Below, piece by piece: positions 35,513-55,960 of a stretch of DNA of 64,000 nucleotides. How positions within the stretch are numbered: the stretch's first letter is position 1; each line of letters opens with the position of its first letter. The translations under genes and the position numbers were made by a program. This DNA is from Myroides odoratus DSM 2801 (GTDB lineage: Bacteria; Bacteroidota; Bacteroidia; Flavobacteriales; Flavobacteriaceae): assembly GCF_000243275.1 (NCBI RefSeq), contig NZ_CM001437.1, positions 738,703 through 802,702 on the forward strand, in the 5' to 3' direction. The notes below the pieces were generated by a model. It did no database searches. It saw only the letters and a program-made list of their open reading frames with translations, and was not told where the DNA came from.

Positions 35513-36916
35513 TTAATTAATTTTTATATCTTCAGTTAGGTTCAATTTATTTAATAAATAAGATAGTTTTATATCTGAGTATTCATAATTTAATGTATCG
35601 TTAGTTAATAATTGAAAAAAATAATCGTTATCGATTTCTGAATTTAGCTTTTGGTCATATTTATTTTCTGTGGAGTTCCATTCTATGAGTTCATTATTCC
35701 TCATATATCCTTTTTGATATGTTGAGTATAATTTAAGTAAATATGCTTCAATATGTGTAAATAATCTTTGGGAATGCTTATCTTCCGAGATAAAGGGTTT
35801 TGATATTTCATAAAATTCTCTCTGAATATCCCTTATGTGAGTGTTTTTAGAAGATAATTTCTGGTAATATTTAGGGTGAATTGTTTTTATATATACTAGG
35901 AATACAAAAATAGATGCGAATAAGAGACTATTATAATTCAATGTTCTCAACACTATTCTAGTGTGAGATAAGATTTTTTCTTGCTGTCGTAAAGTAAGAT
36001 TGCTTATTAATACTTTGCAGGTTTCTCTAAAAGTCTCTCGATCATGCTCAACCCCTCTATATTGATTTCTTTCTTCGGACTTAAAGAATACATCAAACTC
36101 AAAATATTCAAATAAATAATCAAAGAACTTATTAGGATCAGGCTCAGGAATGGAATATTCTATATCAATAAATCGCCTCAAATATTCGTTTGTGTCAATT
36201 TTTTCTGACCCATAAACGCCACAAATAGCATTTCCTAATTGCTCTTTATCAATGGAAAGAACAAATACTATATTAGGAACAGAAAAGAAATGTTTAATCT
36301 GTTCAAGCAAAAGTACAGCATAGTTAGGGCGACATCTGTCTAATTCATCGATTATAAATATTAAAGGTTTTCCATTTGATTCATTTGCTACAAATTCAGA
36401 TAAACTTTTCCTAAACTCTGAAATTGATTTTTTACGTTTAGAATATTCTTTAACATCTTCTTCAAATATCTCAAAAGCACTTTTAGAAGTATCTGTTATA
36501 GCATCAACTAATACTTCAGAATCTACATATCTATTTAGAAAAGCTTTCAAAATTGCTGGAGCAACATTCTTGGATATCACTGCTGCATTTTTTACGACTT
36601 TATTAAATTTATCTTCTTCTTTCTTATTTAAGATTTGTAACTCTCCAAGAAAAGCTGTTAATGGGTTATCTTCGAAATCATTTTCCCATGCATTGAAATA
36701 GATTGTTTTAAATTGTAAGTTTTTCAATGACTGCTCCCACATTTTGACAAAAGTAGACTTACCTGTTCCCCATTTATTATTAATAGCTAAAACAAACCCT
36801 TCTGGATAATTATCAATTATATTTGTTAATACTTCTGCATATTTTTCTCTTTCCAGTTTACAATTAGAAAAAGGCTTTTCTTCATTTATCTCTATATCGT
36901 TGTGTCTAAATTCCAT
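35513..36916 (-). CDS. KAP-family P-loop NTPase
   Basis: A 467-residue protein of the KAP family. Walker A is NNKWGTGKST (residues 46-55). YFNAWENDF follows about 20 residues later, and Walker B is LIFIIDELDRCRP (185-197). A further VPNIVFVLSIDKEQL sensor-type strand and YLRRFIDIEY complete the STAND-like core. KAP NTPases sit at membranes through helices inserted in the domain or through partner proteins, and many are encoded in defence islands and prophages. Here helices within the domain are short (AVISKNVAPAILKAF) and the upstream gene encodes a membrane protein, so a two-component system is likely (inference). The gene is transcribed against the integrase and the early operon. Confidence 0.88.
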   Translation of the reverse strand: MEFRHNDIEINEEKPFSNCKLEREKYAEVLTNIIDNYPEGFVLAINNKWGTGKSTFVKMWEQSLKNLQFKTIYFNAWENDFEDNPLTAFLGELQILNKKEEDKFNKVVKNAAVISKNVAPAILKAFLNRYVDSEVLVDAITDTSKSAFEIFEEDVKEYSKRKKSISEFRKSLSEFVANESNGKPLIFIIDELDRCRPNYAVLLLEQIKHFFSVPNIVFVLSIDKEQLGNAICGVYGSEKIDTNEYLRRFIDIEYSIPEPDPNKFFDYLFEYFEFDVFFKSEERNQYRGVEHDRETFRETCKVLISNLTLRQQEKILSHTRIVLRTLNYNSLLFASIFVFLVYIKTIHPKYYQKLSSKNTHIRDIQREFYEISKPFISEDKHSQRLFTHIEAYLLKLYSTYQKGYMRNNELIEWNSTENKYDQKLNSEIDNDYFFQLLTNDTLNYEYSDIKLSYLLNKLNLTEDIKIN

Positions 36917-44538: not shown

Positions 44539-45519
44539 ATGCAAACAGAAAACCTAATATTCACCAATTGGAAAGAAAGATGTTCTTCACTTGGAAAGTT
44601 ATTGACAAACCTTCCCGAACCCTTAAGAGAAGCAACAGAAGAAGACAGTGTAAGAATACAAACACTACTTGATATTAAAAGAACAGGAAAAAATCCTGAG
44701 ACAAATCGCCCTAATAAATGGGATGATACTAAAGAAAAGGAATTAGAACAACTCCAAAACATTGTCAAAAGAATAGAGCCTAAAGATAAACTTCCGACAG
44801 GCGCAATTACCCACTTAGAAGAAGTGTTTCGCCATTTATTTTGGAAACGCAGAAGATTTCTTGAAAACAAATATCTAAGTAAGGGAACTATTTGCGAAGA
44901 GGATGCTCTCGATTTAAAATCTCAACGCGATGAGTTTTTCTACCGAAAGAACGATGAACATCTAAGTAATGATTTTATCCAAGGAACCCCAGATAATCTT
45001 CAAAAGAAGACTAAAGACACTAAGACCAATTGGGACTTAGAATCATTTGACAACGCAGAACTAACAACACTGTACGAATGGCAATTGAAAGGTTATATGT
45101 GGATTGTTCATAGCTATGACTTACCTGAATTAGAAACCAAAACAGAATCTGAACTTGTGTATTGTTTAGTTAACGCTCCTCTTCATCTAATTGAAGATGA
45201 AAAGAGAAGAATGTGGTTTCAAATGGGACAACCTGACGACACAGACGAAGAATTTCGTTACAAAGTTGCTCAACTAGAGCGAAACATGATTTTCGACGTA
45301 TCGAAGTTTAAAAAAGAATATCCTGGTTACGACTTCTACAACCCGATTAAAGACTTTTCAATACCTCCACATATGCGTCTTAAATCATTCAATGTAACTC
45401 TTACAGAAGAAGATATCAAACACATGACTAGACGAGTTACAATGGCTCGTGAATGGCTTGTAAATAAAGAACGTGAAACCCTAAAACAAATAGCAGATGG
45501 CTGGCGAAGAAATAACTAA
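44539..45519 (+). CDS. PD-(D/E)XK exonuclease (YqaJ/RecE-like)
   Basis: A 326-residue protein. The centre carries FIQGTPDNL (Asp152) followed eight residues later by DTKT (Asp160, Lys162), then a helix with YEWQLKGYMWI. This is the order of motifs II, III and the QxxxY helix in lambda-exonuclease, YqaJ and RecB-type nucleases. Beside a RecT-like gene it would be the 5'-3' exonuclease of a two-component recombinase. N- and C-terminal extensions are helical and unassigned. It overlaps the next gene by 23 bp. Confidence 0.7.
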   Translation: MQTENLIFTNWKERCSSLGKLLTNLPEPLREATEEDSVRIQTLLDIKRTGKNPETNRPNKWDDTKEKELEQLQNIVKRIEPKDKLPTGAITHLEEVFRHLFWKRRRFLENKYLSKGTICEEDALDLKSQRDEFFYRKNDEHLSNDFIQGTPDNLQKKTKDTKTNWDLESFDNAELTTLYEWQLKGYMWIVHSYDLPELETKTESELVYCLVNAPLHLIEDEKRRMWFQMGQPDDTDEEFRYKVAQLERNMIFDVSKFKKEYPGYDFYNPIKDFSIPPHMRLKSFNVTLTEEDIKHMTRRVTMAREWLVNKERETLKQIADGWRRNN

Positions 45520-45904
45520 AGCACTATCCGTAAAGCAACCTTGGGCAGAGTTAATCTGCCTAGGGATTAAAGATGTCGAGAATAGAACTTGGCGAACTAG
45601 ATTCAAAGGCCGAGTTTACATACATGCGTCAATGCATCCAGATAAGAGCGCTCGACTTTCAAAAGAAAGAGAAGAAGTCACAGATAATATTGACGAGTTT
45701 CAATTTAAAAATTCAGCAATTATCGGCGAAGTTACTATTGCAGATTGTGTTCAAAACCACAAATCAATTTGGGCAGATAAAGGAGAAGGCATTTGGCATT
45801 GGGTTTTAAAAGACGCTGTTTTTTATGATAAGCCTATAGAGAATGTAAAAGGCAAATTGGGTATTTGGGATATAAATATCAAAGACTACTTGCAAAGTGC
45901 CTAA
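45497..45904 (+). CDS. ASCH-domain protein
   Basis: A 135-residue protein. KALSVKQPWAELICLGIKDV, ENRTWRTRFKGRVYIHAS and the later AIIGEVTIADC are the signature strands of the ASCH fold, which binds RNA or modified nucleotides. Phages often carry such genes near replication functions; the exact role is unknown. Overlaps on both sides show it belongs to the early operon. Confidence 0.82.
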   Translation: MAGEEITKALSVKQPWAELICLGIKDVENRTWRTRFKGRVYIHASMHPDKSARLSKEREEVTDNIDEFQFKNSAIIGEVTIADCVQNHKSIWADKGEGIWHWVLKDAVFYDKPIENVKGKLGIWDINIKDYLQSA

Positions 45905-50136: not shown

Positions 50137-50202
50137 AAAAACAAGAAAACTTATTGTTTAACACTATCCGAAACAAATCGGACAGATAATCTATTGTTTG
50201 AA

Positions 50203-50820
50203 ATGAACACACAAAACGAGCCTAAATACTTCATCATTACAAAAGGTGAAGGCAGTAATAAAACATACTACAATGGAAAATATGATTACTTCAGTGATTT
50301 AGCAAATGCGACATACGCTACCACTAACAAAGAAGCACAAGCGATTATTACTGTTAGACAACTAATCGGGGCTAAAGTTGAGACGATTACAGAAAGTGAA
50401 TTAGTTTATTCTAAAGCTAATGCAATGACTAAAATCACAATTATGTCTGCCTCGCTTAGTGTATTATTTGAGCATACACTCCCAAATCTTCCTATCAAAA
50501 GCCAAACTATGAAAGGTGCCTATAAACACCTAAAGCATGCATCAGAAGCAGTAAAAGGATTACTACCCGATTACAATCATTTTATCAAGCAAAAGGAAGA
50601 AGATGTCGATGATGTCCAAGGTTGTTTCGATGAACTTATACATGAAATCGCATCAATAAACTTTGTTGACTTGACCAATTTAACTGGCTTAATTCAAGCC
50701 TATAAAGAGGATGAAAAGTCAATGATAGGCATTGCGAGAAAAGTTTTGAAAGAAGCTGAACGTAAGAAGAAAGAAAAGGTTGCACAGAAGAACCAATTAT
50801 CAATTTTAGATCAGATTTAG
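50203..50820 (+). CDS. Hypothetical phage protein, 205 residues
   Basis: Start chosen at ATG 50203; an upstream TTG at 50194 is in frame. Mostly helical, with a beta-rich first 60 residues. The C-terminus reads KKEKVAQKNQLSILDQI, where QLSIL resembles the QL(S/D)LF clamp-binding motif; this is only a suggestion. A hairpin tccga/tcgga at 50167-50182 lies in the leader. Family not recognised. Confidence 0.65.
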   Translation: MNTQNEPKYFIITKGEGSNKTYYNGKYDYFSDLANATYATTNKEAQAIITVRQLIGAKVETITESELVYSKANAMTKITIMSASLSVLFEHTLPNLPIKSQTMKGAYKHLKHASEAVKGLLPDYNHFIKQKEEDVDDVQGCFDELIHEIASINFVDLTNLTGLIQAYKEDEKSMIGIARKVLKEAERKKKEKVAQKNQLSILDQI

Positions 50821-50822
50821 TT

Positions 50823-51464
50823 ATGAATTATGGAACCTTACCTAAAGAAATCGGGACCATTCAGAATGGAATCGATGAGATGATGTTTTACCAGTACTTA
50901 CCAATCAAAGGGAATGATACTTTTTGGATTGACCTTCCAAGTCAGTTAAATAATGATTTTTTACAAGAATTAATCACAATCGTAAATAATGACTTTATCA
51001 ACCTTAGAGGTGCGCAAGAATTCAAAGAACACTACATCTATCTAACTGTAAAACACCTTTATGTTACTCATGGAAAAGGATTGAATCGCCCAGGCATTCA
51101 TTCGGATGGATTTATGACAGATGATATAAATTACATATGGTCAAATGAACTTCCAACTGTTTTTTATTCAGGCGAATTTCCTAATGTTCCAATGGATGAT
51201 GAGCTATCAATCAATTACTTTGAAGAGCAAAAACAGTATTGTGAAAGAGTAGTCTACCCAACAAACAACATCCTTCGCCTTGATCAATTCAATATTCATG
51301 AAACAAACACAATTGAGAAATTCAGCGGCTTAAGATGCTTTGTGAAAATTTCCTTTTCGAAGGACAAATATGATTTAAAAGGAAACGCTAAAAACAGTTG
51401 TATAACATCTGATTGGGAGTATAGAGAAAGAAGTCAAACAAGGAATATTCCACAAAAGATTTAG
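50823..51464 (+). CDS. Putative Fe(II)/2-oxoglutarate dioxygenase-like protein
   Basis: A 213-residue protein. NRPGIHSDGF supplies an HxD pair (His93, Asp95), and FNIHETNTIEKFSGLRCFVK supplies a distal histidine (His159) with an arginine 12 residues later (Arg171). That is the order of iron ligands and 2-oxoglutarate-binding arginine in double-stranded beta-helix dioxygenases. It lies 2 bp upstream of a C5-cytosine methyltransferase, which makes a role in further modifying methylated cytosine an attractive guess. No direct evidence shows the substrate, and I do not recognise a named family. Confidence 0.6.
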   Translation: MNYGTLPKEIGTIQNGIDEMMFYQYLPIKGNDTFWIDLPSQLNNDFLQELITIVNNDFINLRGAQEFKEHYIYLTVKHLYVTHGKGLNRPGIHSDGFMTDDINYIWSNELPTVFYSGEFPNVPMDDELSINYFEEQKQYCERVVYPTNNILRLDQFNIHETNTIEKFSGLRCFVKISFSKDKYDLKGNAKNSCITSDWEYRERSQTRNIPQKI

Positions 51465-51466
51465 TT

Positions 51467-52738
51467 ATGCAAAAATTAAAAGTTGGTTCCGACTTCTCTG
51501 GAGTTGGAGCCTTTGATCAAGCGTTATTAAGACTTGAAGTGGACTATGAAAGTGTATTTGCTTGTGACATGGATAGTAATGCTAGACATTCGTTTATTTT
51601 AAACTATGGTACTGAAAAGGATTTAGAATTGTTAACGCATCCATATGTTATATTTTGTAATAAAATGTATGGTTCATTTTCTAAGCATGGAAACTTTAAA
51701 AAGCAAACATATTCAGATGTTAAGAAACTCGCTAGAATACAAGACGAAGCTGCTCGCCTATTTTCTTTCTATTATCCATGGAATGTCAAGTATAGAAAAG
51801 AATCTGCCCCTCTAGATATTTATATGACTTCACCTCCTTGTCAGGCTTTTAGTTTAGCTGGGAAACGCAAAGGAGAGGAAGATAAAAGAGGGGTATTGTT
51901 TTATAATTCGCATGAGTTTATTCAAAAAAACAAACCGAGATACTTCATTTTTGAGAATGTGAAAGGACTACTTAGCGACGATGGAGGAAAAACCTTTCAA
52001 CGTTGGATTGATTTTCTCGGGGGGAAATCTGTAAACGGCAACCCTGTTATTTTTCCTCATGAAGAATCAGTTCCATATCATATTTATTATAAAGTACTGA
52101 ATGCCAAAAATTATGGGGTCCCTCAAAATCGCGAGCGGATTTTTATAGTTGGGATTCGTGATGATCAAGACAATAACTTTTCTTTTCCTGTTGAAATTGA
52201 ACTTAAAAAAAGATTGAAGGATATTTTAGAAACTGATGTAGATGAGAAGTATTTCTTAAGTGATAAATTAATTGATTTTTTTATAAGTCATACAGAGAAA
52301 CATAAACAAAAAGGTAATGGATTTAGTTTTAAGCCAAAAGACATTGAAAGTATAGGTCAAGCAGTAACGACTAAAGCAGGAACAAGGGTAGACGATAATT
52401 ACATTTATGTAAAATCAGCCAATTCTAAAGGCTATGAAATAGCCGAAGAAGAAGAAGATTCTATAAACTTCGAACACCCAAACAGCGAAACAAGACGAGG
52501 AAGGGTTGGAAAAGGAGTTGCGCAAACACTTACCACAAGCTGTAATCAAGGTATTTACTCCAATCTTATGATAAGAAAATTAACACCTCGTGAATGCTTT
52601 AGGTTGATGGATTTCCCTGATTCATTCAAATGGAATGTTTCAGACTCTCAAGCCTATAAACAAGCTGGTAATAGTATAGTTGTAGCTGTCCTAGCTGCAA
52701 TAATTCAAAAACTAAATTTAAATGAAATCAAAGTCTAA
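51467..52738 (+). CDS. DNA (cytosine-5) methyltransferase
   Basis: A 423-residue protein with all main C5-MTase motifs: VGSDFSGVGAFDQAL (motif I), ACDMDSNA (II), catalytic SPPCQAFSLAG (IV, Cys125), FENVKGLL (VI), GVPQNRERIFIVGIR (VIII), LTPRECFRLMDFPDSF (IX) and QAGNSIVVAVLAAI (X). The variable region of about 120 residues between VIII and IX sets the target sequence. No restriction endonuclease gene is beside it, so it is probably a solitary phage enzyme that protects or prepares DNA. Dioxygenase-like genes lie directly before and shortly after it. Confidence 0.93.
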   Translation: MQKLKVGSDFSGVGAFDQALLRLEVDYESVFACDMDSNARHSFILNYGTEKDLELLTHPYVIFCNKMYGSFSKHGNFKKQTYSDVKKLARIQDEAARLFSFYYPWNVKYRKESAPLDIYMTSPPCQAFSLAGKRKGEEDKRGVLFYNSHEFIQKNKPRYFIFENVKGLLSDDGGKTFQRWIDFLGGKSVNGNPVIFPHEESVPYHIYYKVLNAKNYGVPQNRERIFIVGIRDDQDNNFSFPVEIELKKRLKDILETDVDEKYFLSDKLIDFFISHTEKHKQKGNGFSFKPKDIESIGQAVTTKAGTRVDDNYIYVKSANSKGYEIAEEEEDSINFEHPNSETRRGRVGKGVAQTLTTSCNQGIYSNLMIRKLTPRECFRLMDFPDSFKWNVSDSQAYKQAGNSIVVAVLAAIIQKLNLNEIKV

Positions 52739-52814
52739 ACACCCATCCTTAGAAACAGCTTTACTAATTGCAATGATAACAGCAATAGTAGTTTTGAATT
52801 ACATCTTTTCTTAA
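52722..52814 (+). CDS. Single-helix small membrane protein, 30 residues
   Basis: ATG 52722 inside the methyltransferase end, TAA 52812-52814. MKSKSKHPSLE, then ALLIAMITAIVVLNYIF, a basic start and a clear membrane helix. It fills the gap before the next gene. Its role is unknown. Confidence 0.5.
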   Translation: MKSKSKHPSLETALLIAMITAIVVLNYIFS

Positions 52815-52826
52815 AAAAAACATACC

Positions 52827-53465
52827 ATGAAACATACCGAAGACAATTTTCTTCCTCAAGAGTTATTTGAGGAACTGCAAAACTATTGCCTAAACACAGA
52901 TTTTCAACGAATCAAACTAGGCGAGAAGGAGTTCGATATTTTAGAAACTCCGAAGGAAATACTTCCCTATTTACAAGAGGAAGGACACGAACTAATTGTA
53001 ACATTTATTAGGCAAGCGACACCCGATTTTGATACCGATTTGCGCATTCATGCAGACAACATCATCCAAGGCGAAAAAACAGCACTCGCCAAGGTATTAT
53101 ACATCAACCCAAAAGACGGAACTACTGAAAACGGAACAGCATTTTGGAAACACCATATTCACGGAGAAGAACTACCAGAAGATGTTACAAACGAAGAGTT
53201 TAATCGTTTGATTACAGAAGATGCAAACGATTGGGAGAAATGGAGTATTCAACAAATATTATTTAGTGAGCCAAATCGCTTAGTTACTTACAAATCAAAC
53301 TTGTTTCACAGCAAGTTTCCCGCAAAAATTCACAACGGAAAACGCATTGTATTAGTTGCATTTTACAAGAAGTTCGAACACCAATTCAAAGAACTATCTA
53401 TTGAAGAAGTAAACGAGAATCGTTCATCAGCATACGAATATTTAAACTTCGAGAAAGATGAGTAG
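52827..53465 (+). CDS. Putative 2-oxoglutarate/Fe(II) oxygenase-like protein
   Basis: A 212-residue protein. DLRIHADN gives HxD (His75, Asp77), and SNLFHSKFPAKIHNGKRIVL gives the distal His161 with Arg173, again 12 residues apart. TAFWKHHIHG lies between. This layout follows small phage and prolyl-hydroxylase-type dioxygenases. It shares the ligand spacing, but little else, with the protein at 50823. The same module contains the C5-methyltransferase. It overlaps the YopX gene by 8 bp. Confidence 0.65.
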   Translation: MKHTEDNFLPQELFEELQNYCLNTDFQRIKLGEKEFDILETPKEILPYLQEEGHELIVTFIRQATPDFDTDLRIHADNIIQGEKTALAKVLYINPKDGTTENGTAFWKHHIHGEELPEDVTNEEFNRLITEDANDWEKWSIQQILFSEPNRLVTYKSNLFHSKFPAKIHNGKRIVLVAFYKKFEHQFKELSIEEVNENRSSAYEYLNFEKDE

Positions 53466-54904: not shown

Positions 54905-55960
54905 ATGATTAATTTATTCAATACGCAGATTGAAACATTATCTGTACACCAAGTAAACAACAAAGCAAGAAACGAGGATGTTTTCTTAACTGAGAACCCT
55001 TATACGTTAACAGACGAAATAGCGCCTTTGCTTAAAGAGTATTTCTTTAAACCGTTCCGAGAGAAAGACGAAGACTATTTCCGATTTGAACATGATGTTG
55101 ATTTAGAATTTCATACTATGTATAATATCGCAACGAGCATTTTCCAAAATCCTAATTCGGCTCATGATAAATCAAAAGAAATAGCTCGACATCTTTACGA
55201 GCAATCCGGACACCCTCATATCAAAAGTGGAGAGCTTTATGTTACTTACCTAACCAATGTATCGATCGATAACAATGTAGTTGACGCGATCGGTATCTTT
55301 AAAAGTGAAATCAAAACTGATTTTATCCAATTCGACAAGGAAGAATCAAACTTAAAGATGCGACTAGAGCAGGGGGTAAACCTAGGCAAGCTGGATAAAG
55401 GAGTTTTAATATTCAACTACAAAAAAGAAGAAGGCTACAAAATTCTAACAATTGACAGTAACCGATATGATGCGCGTTATTGGATGGGACACTTCCTTGA
55501 ATTAGATATTTTTGAGGATGAAAACTTCCATACCAAAAAGTATTTGAAATTCTGCCAAGACTTCGCGAAAGAAGTGGTCCTTCCTGCTGAAGATAAAAAA
55601 GAAGAAGTAATGTTTTTGAATCGATCAGTTGATTACTTCGCGAAGAATGATGATTTCGAAGAAACGAATTTCTTAAACGAAGTCCTCGATAACCCCGACC
55701 TAATCGCCGAGTTCAAAAACTACAAAGTAGACAAAGGGGAGAAGTACAGTATCGAAGATGTGAGCTCCTTTCCAATCTCAAACAAGGCCGTAACCGAAGC
55801 ACGAAAGAAGTTTAAAAACGTAATCAACCTGGATACGAATATCCAAATCAAATTTGATTTCGTGAATCCTGAAAGCGCAGATAAATTTGTAGAAAAAGGA
55901 TGGGATGAGGAAAGACAGATGTACTACTATTTAATTTATTTTAATAAAGAAGTTAAATAA
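54905..55960 (+). CDS. Nucleoid-associated protein (NdpA/YejK-like, 37-kDa family)
   Basis: A 351-residue protein. The order of blocks (HQVNNKARNEDVFLTENPYT, SGELYVTYLTNVSIDNNVVD, AIGIFKSE, NRYDARYW and a C-terminal strand-rich domain) fits the 37-kDa nucleoid-associated family, which binds double-stranded DNA. Copies on phages and mobile elements are frequent, and their role there is unclear. Preceded by the leader aaccctattaaaaat. Confidence 0.8.
   Translation: MINLFNTQIETLSVHQVNNKARNEDVFLTENPYTLTDEIAPLLKEYFFKPFREKDEDYFRFEHDVDLEFHTMYNIATSIFQNPNSAHDKSKEIARHLYEQSGHPHIKSGELYVTYLTNVSIDNNVVDAIGIFKSEIKTDFIQFDKEESNLKMRLEQGVNLGKLDKGVLIFNYKKEEGYKILTIDSNRYDARYWMGHFLELDIFEDENFHTKKYLKFCQDFAKEVVLPAEDKKEEVMFLNRSVDYFAKNDDFEETNFLNEVLDNPDLIAEFKNYKVDKGEKYSIEDVSSFPISNKAVTEARKKFKNVINLDTNIQIKFDFVNPESADKFVEKGWDEERQMYYYLIYFNKEVK

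What the first reader, a model, noticed from the sequence alone, without database searches (positions are those of the whole stretch)
50823..53465. C5-cytosine methyltransferase flanked by two dioxygenase-like proteins: possible DNA hypermodification module
The proteins at 50823 and 52827 both show HxD and a distal His followed by Arg after exactly 12 residues, the pattern of Fe(II)/2-oxoglutarate enzymes, and they bracket a C5-methyltransferase. Phage TET/JBP-type dioxygenases that oxidise 5-methylcytosine are known to accompany such methyltransferases. The two proteins here are otherwise dissimilar and not of a family I recognise, so this may be a new two-oxygenase cytosine-modification route. 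No glycosyltransferase is visible nearby, so 5-hydroxymethylcytosine or a further oxidised base would be expected.
Basis: inference. Interest (0 to 1): 0.7.

Follow-up and report, generated by a model that had tools for sequence, protein, structure and literature searches.

The report
Two phage oxygenases, no shared pathway
A prophage carries a cytosine DNA methyltransferase gene between two genes for proteins predicted to be iron-dependent oxygenases; related phages swap or lack the methyltransferase while keeping one or both oxygenases, so the trio is likely not one DNA-modification pathway, and one oxygenase instead belongs to an unnamed phage family that often travels with a small partner gene.

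Summary
ox1 (50823-51464) and ox2 (52827-53465) both have HxD...H...R with Arg 12 positions after the distal His, invariant in 226 of 226 ox1 and 198 of 199 ox2 rows, and confident predicted folds that match solved Fe(II)/2-oxoglutarate oxygenases. The gene between is a C5-cytosine methyltransferase.

The "two-oxygenase cytosine route" is not supported. In related phages L182 keeps ox1 and ox2 without a methyltransferase, L077 and L079 have ox2 with other C5-methyltransferases and no ox1, L078 has ox2 alone. Of 61 loci with relatives of this methyltransferase only the window's own phage has an oxygenase in the flanks seen. C5-methyltransferases lie near ox1 about as often as near a control gene (12 of 53 versus 5 of 24 long loci). 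No Tet/JBP match.

Instead, ox1 is phrog_1843, with no Pfam model; 30 of 63 non-redundant ox1 loci have a small DUF7352 gene just upstream. A reverse search found ox1 beside 67 of 70 such genes, 32 of 35 on contigs not seen before. The window's copy lacks it. ox2 is DUF6445, prolyl-hydroxylase-like. Substrates are unknown.

The parts
50194..50820 (+). up208, 208-aa protein of unknown function (phrog_9957); left border of the variable slot
   Evidence: phrog_9957, 6e-9; present in L077 (90%), L182 (59%), L079 (45%), no match in L078
50823..51464 (+). ox1: predicted Fe(II)/2-oxoglutarate oxygenase, phrog_1843 family, no Pfam model
51467..52738 (+). C5-cytosine DNA methyltransferase, no restriction gene recognised among the neighbours scanned; interchangeable cargo of the slot
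   Evidence: PF00145 3.6e-66; TIGR00675 4e-71; M.HhaI chains are the closest solved relatives; motifs PPCQ, ENVKG, QNRER read in the sequence
50814..50825 (+). first copy of 12-bp seam GATTTAGTTATG (up208 end / ox1 start)
   Evidence: only two exact + strand occurrences in the window
51458..51469 (+). second copy of the 12-bp seam (ox1 end / methyltransferase start); in L077 the same seam joins up208 directly to a different C5-methyltransferase
52722..52814 (+). 30-aa ORF with one hydrophobic stretch, overlapping the methyltransferase end; conserved upstream of ox2
   Evidence: same small ORF in L077, L078, L182
52827..53465 (+). ox2: predicted Fe(II)/2-oxoglutarate oxygenase, prolyl-4-hydroxylase-like, DUF6445; C-terminal residues from about 183 are a low-confidence tail absent from L077
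53458..53811 (+). YopX-family protein downstream of ox2
   Evidence: PF09643 5.6e-11
54905..55960 (+). NA37 nucleoid-associated-family protein, conserved right marker of the region
   Evidence: PF04245 2.5e-55; 74-96% identical in L010, L077, L078, L079, L182

Best explanation
The locus is a variable cargo slot of a flavobacterial prophage in which a C5-cytosine DNA methyltransferase sits between two proteins predicted to be Fe(II)/2-oxoglutarate oxygenases, and the three likely act on different substrates rather than in one cytosine-modification route. The methyltransferase (inferred) marks phage DNA with plain 5-methylcytosine as protection against host restriction; related phages lack it or carry other methyltransferases there. 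ox1 (phrog_1843) likely hydroxylates one conserved nucleotide, nucleic-acid or other universal substrate; across its family it is often coupled to a small DUF7352 protein, which the window's copy lacks. ox2 (DUF6445) likely hydroxylates a protein, as several of its closest folds do. Shown: gene content, invariant metal and 2OG residues, predicted folds, swapping of the slot, DUF7352 linkage. Inferred: all substrates and all activities.
For: Comparison of the slot: window up208-ox1-MTase-ox2; L182 up208-ox1(77%)-118 aa-ox2(73%), no MTase; L077 two other DNA methylases-up208-another C5-MTase-119 aa-ox2(96%), no ox1; L079 up208-another C5-MTase-...-ox2(58%), no ox1; L078 139 aa-ox2(95%), neither; L010 ox2(54%)...NA37-ox1(47%), no MTase. 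The C5-MTases of L077 and L079 have no BLASTP hit to the window's at 1e-5 though both are PF00145. DNA homology to L182 stops at window 51460 and resumes at 52748, to L077 stops at 50828 and resumes at 52737. Only 1 of 61 loci of MTase relatives, the window's own, has an oxygenase nearby. C5-MTase frequency near ox1 is like the control (12/53 and 5/24 long loci). The best-scoring MTase homologue is 69% identical over 85% of the protein, and one intein-bearing protein 80% over 70%, whereas ox1 has relatives at 77-92% over its whole length and ox2 at 73-96% over about 85%. DUF7352 just upstream (within 700 nt) of ox1 in 30 of 63 non-redundant loci (PF24043), 0 of 221 other loci, and reciprocally ox1 beside 67 of 70, or 32 of the 35 on contigs not in the ox1 search. 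ox1 conserves R89, K175, N188, N191, R203, R207, N208 beyond the metal site in at least 222 of 226 rows, which speaks for one common substrate. ox2 relatives: GroES-like family in 22, terminase in 22, portal in 21 of 33 non-redundant loci (families named from representative L106).
Against: ox1 and the methyltransferase are separated by 2 nt and are likely co-transcribed in the window, and up208 is followed by a C5-methylase in L077 and L079. C5-MTases are found within 8 kb of ox1 in 18 of 73 viral and 6 of 21 genome loci, among them Chryseobacterium L183, so some phages may use both. ox1 relatives lie among replication and nucleotide genes in several named phages, and one has an annotated adenine methyltransferase and dCMP deaminase nearby, so a base-modifying role of ox1 is not excluded. 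In the window's own phage ox2 is not beside recognised head genes. The flanks seen were limited (up to 8 kb, or 5 kb for the MTase set), and control loci are shorter than ox1 loci (median 9.4 against 16.6 kb), hence the count on loci of 12 kb or more. A fold match shows no substrate.
Confidence: 0.66

Rival explanations
1. The first reader's module: the methyltransferase makes 5-methylcytosine, and ox1 and ox2 oxidise it (5-hydroxymethylcytosine or further), giving a new two-oxygenase cytosine route.
For: Gene order and 2-nt spacing of ox1 and MTase; both flanking proteins are predicted 2OG oxygenases; phage TET enzymes acting on 5mC made by a phage MTase are known (Burke et al. 2021, recalled; seen here only as a reference-list entry in PMC11347163).
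Against: Oxygenases without MTase and MTase without oxygenases in relatives; no enrichment of C5-MTases over the control; no Tet_JBP match.
Confidence: 0.08
2. ox1 alone modifies phage DNA or nucleotides (for example hydroxylates a pyrimidine or removes an alkyl group), independent of the methyltransferase.
For: Location in replication or nucleotide regions: next to DNA polymerase in Acibel007; one gene after a helicase and next to a polynucleotide kinase in Necrophoxinus; one gene after a NAD-dependent ligase, with thymidylate synthase near, in XM05; between RNA polymerase and SSB, with other genes, in RHEph01. Invariant Arg, Lys and Asn residues could bind phosphate or base.
Against: These neighbours are not recurrent: homologues of seven such kinase, ligase and thymidylate synthase genes recur in at most one other ox1 locus each. 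The best fold matches are mostly small-molecule and amino-acid oxygenases, PHD2 also.
Confidence: 0.4
3. ox1 hydroxylates a conserved protein (translation or transcription factor) or a small metabolite, with DUF7352 as substrate adaptor or substrate.
For: Tight two-gene coupling with DUF7352; fold matches mostly to amino-acid and small-molecule hydroxylases and PHD2; conserved across phages of very different hosts.
Against: About half of ox1 genes, the window's included, show no DUF7352 nearby, so it cannot be the sole substrate; no direct evidence for any protein substrate.
Confidence: 0.35
4. ox2 is a protein (prolyl or asparaginyl) hydroxylase acting on a virion or chaperonin-dependent protein.
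Confidence: 0.45

Closest known systems
Phage TET dioxygenase plus C5-methyltransferase pathways (Burke et al. 2021 PNAS; recalled, seen only as a citation in PMC11347163)
   Same: A phage C5-methyltransferase near Fe(II)/2OG oxygenase genes.
   Different: No Tet_JBP match; no conserved linkage of ox1 or ox2 with the methyltransferase; no downstream base-modifying gene recognised among the genes scanned.
EGLN/P4H-like 2OG-Fe(II) oxygenases of marine phages (Phold paper PMC12774648, passages seen; it names PHROG 61)
   Same: ox2 has the same fold class (PHD2, P4H, OGFOD1 matches).
   Different: ox2 belongs to DUF6445 and matches phrog_1644 and phrog_274; no PHROG 61 match was returned.
phrog_1843 (unknown function)
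   Same: ox1 is a member (2.1e-24).
   Different: Nothing known of it in the library; identified here as a predicted 2OG oxygenase, often with a DUF7352 neighbour.
C5-MTase PF00145 / M.HhaI
   Same: Catalytic motifs and profile match.
   Different: About 44 more residues before the PPCQ region than M.HhaI (query 116 aligns to 72); target sequence unknown; no restriction gene recognised beside it.

Membership tests
Fe(II)/2-oxoglutarate oxygenase superfamily | HxD...H metal triad with 2OG-binding Arg, conserved | tested here: met
   226/226 ox1 and 198/199 ox2 rows
Fe(II)/2-oxoglutarate oxygenase superfamily | double-stranded beta-helix fold | tested here: met
Fe(II)/2-oxoglutarate oxygenase superfamily | iron- and 2OG-dependent turnover | not testable with these tools
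   needs purified protein
TET/JBP | match to Pfam Tet_JBP (PF12851) | tested here: not met
   no match in either protein, in the 48+48 alignment members, window's included, or in the genome at E up to 1
TET/JBP | structural similarity closer to TET than to other 2OG oxygenases | tested here: inconclusive
   only the best 50 rows are shown; unlisted families are not excluded
TET/JBP phage hypermodification system | conserved genomic linkage of oxygenase and C5-methyltransferase | tested here: not met
   1 of 61 MTase loci (own); 12/53 ox1 loci against 5/24 control loci; slot swaps
C5-cytosine DNA methyltransferase | PF00145 profile and catalytic motifs | tested here: met
   224.3 bits; PPCQ, ENVKG, QNRER read
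Type II restriction-modification | cognate restriction endonuclease beside the methyltransferase | tested here: inconclusive
   none recognised in Pfam scans of 20 window proteins, but many of them have no family at all
DUF6445 (PF20043) | score over the curated cut-off | tested here: met
   ox2 24.4 against 24 bits; 48 of 48 alignment members match at E up to 0.1
phrog_1843 | profile match | tested here: met
   ox1 87.5 bits, residues 17-195
ox1-DUF7352 pair | DUF7352 gene just upstream of ox1 | tested here: not met
   none found in the window; 30 of 63 non-redundant ox1 loci have it

The most novel reading that the evidence does not exclude
ox1 (phrog_1843) together with the small protein DUF7352 is an undescribed two-gene oxygenase cassette spread through phages of Bacteroidota, Alphaproteobacteria and Gammaproteobacteria (with solo ox1 also in Actinobacteria phages), which modifies a universal nucleic-acid, nucleotide or translation target during infection.
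Probability: 0.35. Interest if true: 0.65.

Novelty: new variant of a known kind. Interest (0 to 1): 0.4.

Why it matters
It removes a tempting but unsupported claim (a new two-enzyme cytosine oxidation route) and replaces it with a testable one: an unnamed, widespread phage oxygenase family whose catalytic residues never varied in the rows examined and whose relatives in named phages are filed as hypothetical proteins or, in one record, as 'DNA endonuclease V'. Its close tie with a DUF7352 subfamily gives a concrete handle on the function of both families.

Tried and rejected
Rejected: conserved triad. The methyltransferase is absent or replaced in the closest relatives. Rejected: linkage of ox1 with polynucleotide kinase, ligase or thymidylate synthase seen in a few named phages; homologues recur in at most one other locus each. 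Not trusted as labels: 'DNA endonuclease V' (phrog_274) and 'minor coat protein' (phrog_1644) for these folds. Led nowhere: sequence search of solved structures for ox1 and ox2 (hits were a RecA fusion, designed proteins and other weak matches, read as chance); NCBIfam for ox1 and ox2; papers on DUF6445, DUF7352 and phrog_1843 (none); Burke et al. 2021 is not held; passages of PMC12707154 and PMC8670742 did not bear on the question. No TET chain appeared among the fold rows shown, which proves nothing. Genome searches: ox1 in 1 of 149 same-family genomes, the own one; ox2 in 2 of 61 same-genus genomes, own included, the other with a stop inside; MTase at E up to 1e-30 in 5 of 61, the four others only 37-44% identical. 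These fit mobile cargo. One search found a second C5-MTase in the genome; not studied.

Limits of counts. One search compared eight loci: L265 is the same contig as L078, and L183 and L184 share little but ox1; L183 has a C5-MTase 2.4 kb upstream of ox1. Lists were capped: 80 of 362 ox2 loci, 80 of 109 control loci, 120 of 536, 128 and 7992 proteins. The DUF7352 profile and alignment A3 were made from ox1-linked members only, so describe that subfamily, not all of DUF7352. L053 and L075 are two ends of one contig and count twice among the 63. Controls were not matched for host or length. Redundancy was removed only for the 63-locus and 33-locus counts.

Full report
What is there. The window's right half is a prophage: genes of the region are 100% identical to IMG/VR contig 2838948833. 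Three genes in a row, 50823-53465, are ox1, a C5-cytosine methyltransferase and ox2. ox1 follows an upstream gene, up208, by 2 nt and precedes the methyltransferase by 2 nt.

The module reading fails on comparison. Five related phages or contigs share markers of the region (NA37 in all five; up300 in four) but differ in content. L182, on a Flavobacteriaceae MAG contig, has up208-ox1-118 aa-ox2 and no methyltransferase. L077 has a Dam-type methylase, a protein with a below-cut-off N6/N4-methylase match, up208, a different C5-methyltransferase (PF00145), a 119-aa gene and ox2, but no ox1. L079 has up208, a third C5-methyltransferase and, further on, ox2. L078 has ox2 only. L010 has ox2, then NA37, then ox1. 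Two further loci in that call, L183 and L184, share little but ox1; L183 has a C5-methyltransferase 2.4 kb before it. DNA alignments break close to gene borders: homology to L182 ends at window 51460 (end of ox1) and restarts at 52748; to L077 it ends at 50828 and restarts at 52737. A 12-bp seam, GATTTAGTTATG, occurs only twice as an exact + strand match in the window, before ox1 and before the methyltransferase, and the same seam joins up208 directly to the methyltransferase in L077. This is what insertion or exchange of single-gene cassettes would leave (inference).

Counts agree. Relatives of this methyltransferase were found at 61 viral loci; only the window's own phage has ox1 or ox2 nearby (flanks up to 5 kb). 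With a sensitive search, C5-methyltransferases lie within up to 8 kb of ox1 in 18 of 73 viral and 6 of 21 genome loci, and of ox2 in 4 of 80; for a control gene (DUF6291) it is 13 of 80. For loci of at least 12 kb the figures are 12/53, 6/21, 4/44 and 5/24. By the offsets printed there, a C5-methyltransferase directly follows ox1 only in the window's own phage. In the protein lists, the best-scoring methyltransferase homologue is 69% identical over 85% of its length, and one intein-bearing protein is 80% over 70%, while ox1 and ox2 have relatives at 77-92% and 73-95%, three pairs of them on contigs of the same length (5226, 55784 and 63105 bases), lengths that do not appear in the methyltransferase list shown (120 of 7992 hits).

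What ox1 travels with. The most recurrent neighbour of ox1 (29 of 63 loci; the next family reached 7) is a small protein of about 95 aa, Pfam DUF7352 (PF24043). With a profile it lies just upstream (within 700 nt) in 30 of 63 non-redundant ox1 loci (43 of 93 counting all, own copies included) and in 7 of 21 genome loci, with two more having it downstream. It was not found in 80 ox2, 61 methyltransferase and 80 DUF6291 loci. The reverse search gave 70 loci of this DUF7352 subfamily, 67 with ox1 next to it; half of these contigs were already in the ox1 set, and among the 35 that were not, 32 have ox1. The seeds were all ox1-linked, so this applies to the subfamily. The window's ox1 lacks it. ox1 also keeps many polar residues outside the metal site (R89, K175, N188, N191, R203, R207, N208 in at least 222 of 226 rows), which fits one conserved substrate in phages of Bacteroidota, Rhizobiales, Microbacterium, Pseudoalteromonas and Acinetobacter hosts. 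Its named-phage neighbours include replication and nucleotide genes of changing kinds, many being hypothetical. I therefore favour a nucleotide, nucleic-acid or other universal substrate for ox1; this is inference, and no call separates these options.

What ox2 travels with. In 33 non-redundant ox2 loci a GroES-like family occurs in 22 (the eight members printed are all directly upstream), terminase in 22 and portal in 21 (named from the representative L106). In Maribacter phage Panino ox2 is two genes before groEL. With its prolyl-hydroxylase-like fold this points to a protein substrate (inference). In the window's own phage the neighbours are early genes. The Phold paper (PMC12774648, passages seen) reports EGLN3-like oxygenases as widespread in phages of marine bacteria, so ox2 is a known kind of protein.

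Verdict. The useful residue is the ox1-DUF7352 association, for which I found no paper (in the held library only).

Noticed in passing
window 52722-52814: A 30-aa ORF with one hydrophobic stretch (MKSKSKHPSLETALLIAMITAIVVLNYIFS) overlaps the methyltransferase end and is conserved just upstream of ox2 in L077, L078 and L182; likely a small membrane protein.
   Followed up: partly
L077:4291-7530: In the same slot of a related phage stand a Dam-type methylase, a protein with a below-cut-off N6/N4-methylase match and a different C5-methyltransferase: a methylase exchange hotspot.
   Followed up: partly
window 53372-53465: ox2's C-terminal tail (from about residue 183) is absent from L077, which instead has a 101-aa gene there; the tail is low-confidence in the model.
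   Followed up: partly
protein P0271: A relative of the methyltransferase, 80% identical over 70% of the query, is 703 aa long and carries intein-type Pfam domains (PF14528, PF14890; meaning recalled).
   Followed up: no
G000:C1:2754522-2755739: A second C5-methyltransferase elsewhere in the host genome.
   Followed up: no
window 35513-36916 (-): KAP-family P-loop NTPase (PF07693) near the prophage's integrase-like end; possible defence or accessory gene.
   Followed up: no
window 45497-45904: ASCH-domain protein (PF04266), kept in L077, L078, L079 and L182.
   Followed up: no
L063:7986-9032 and L065: ox1 with a C-terminal extension of about 130 aa, in L063 matching phrog_20342, a natural fusion that might hint at function.
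   Followed up: no
Orpheovirus A0A2I2L347, Catovirus A0A1V0S8Z7: Giant-virus proteins share the ox1 fold (TM-score by query 0.84 and 0.71).
   Followed up: no
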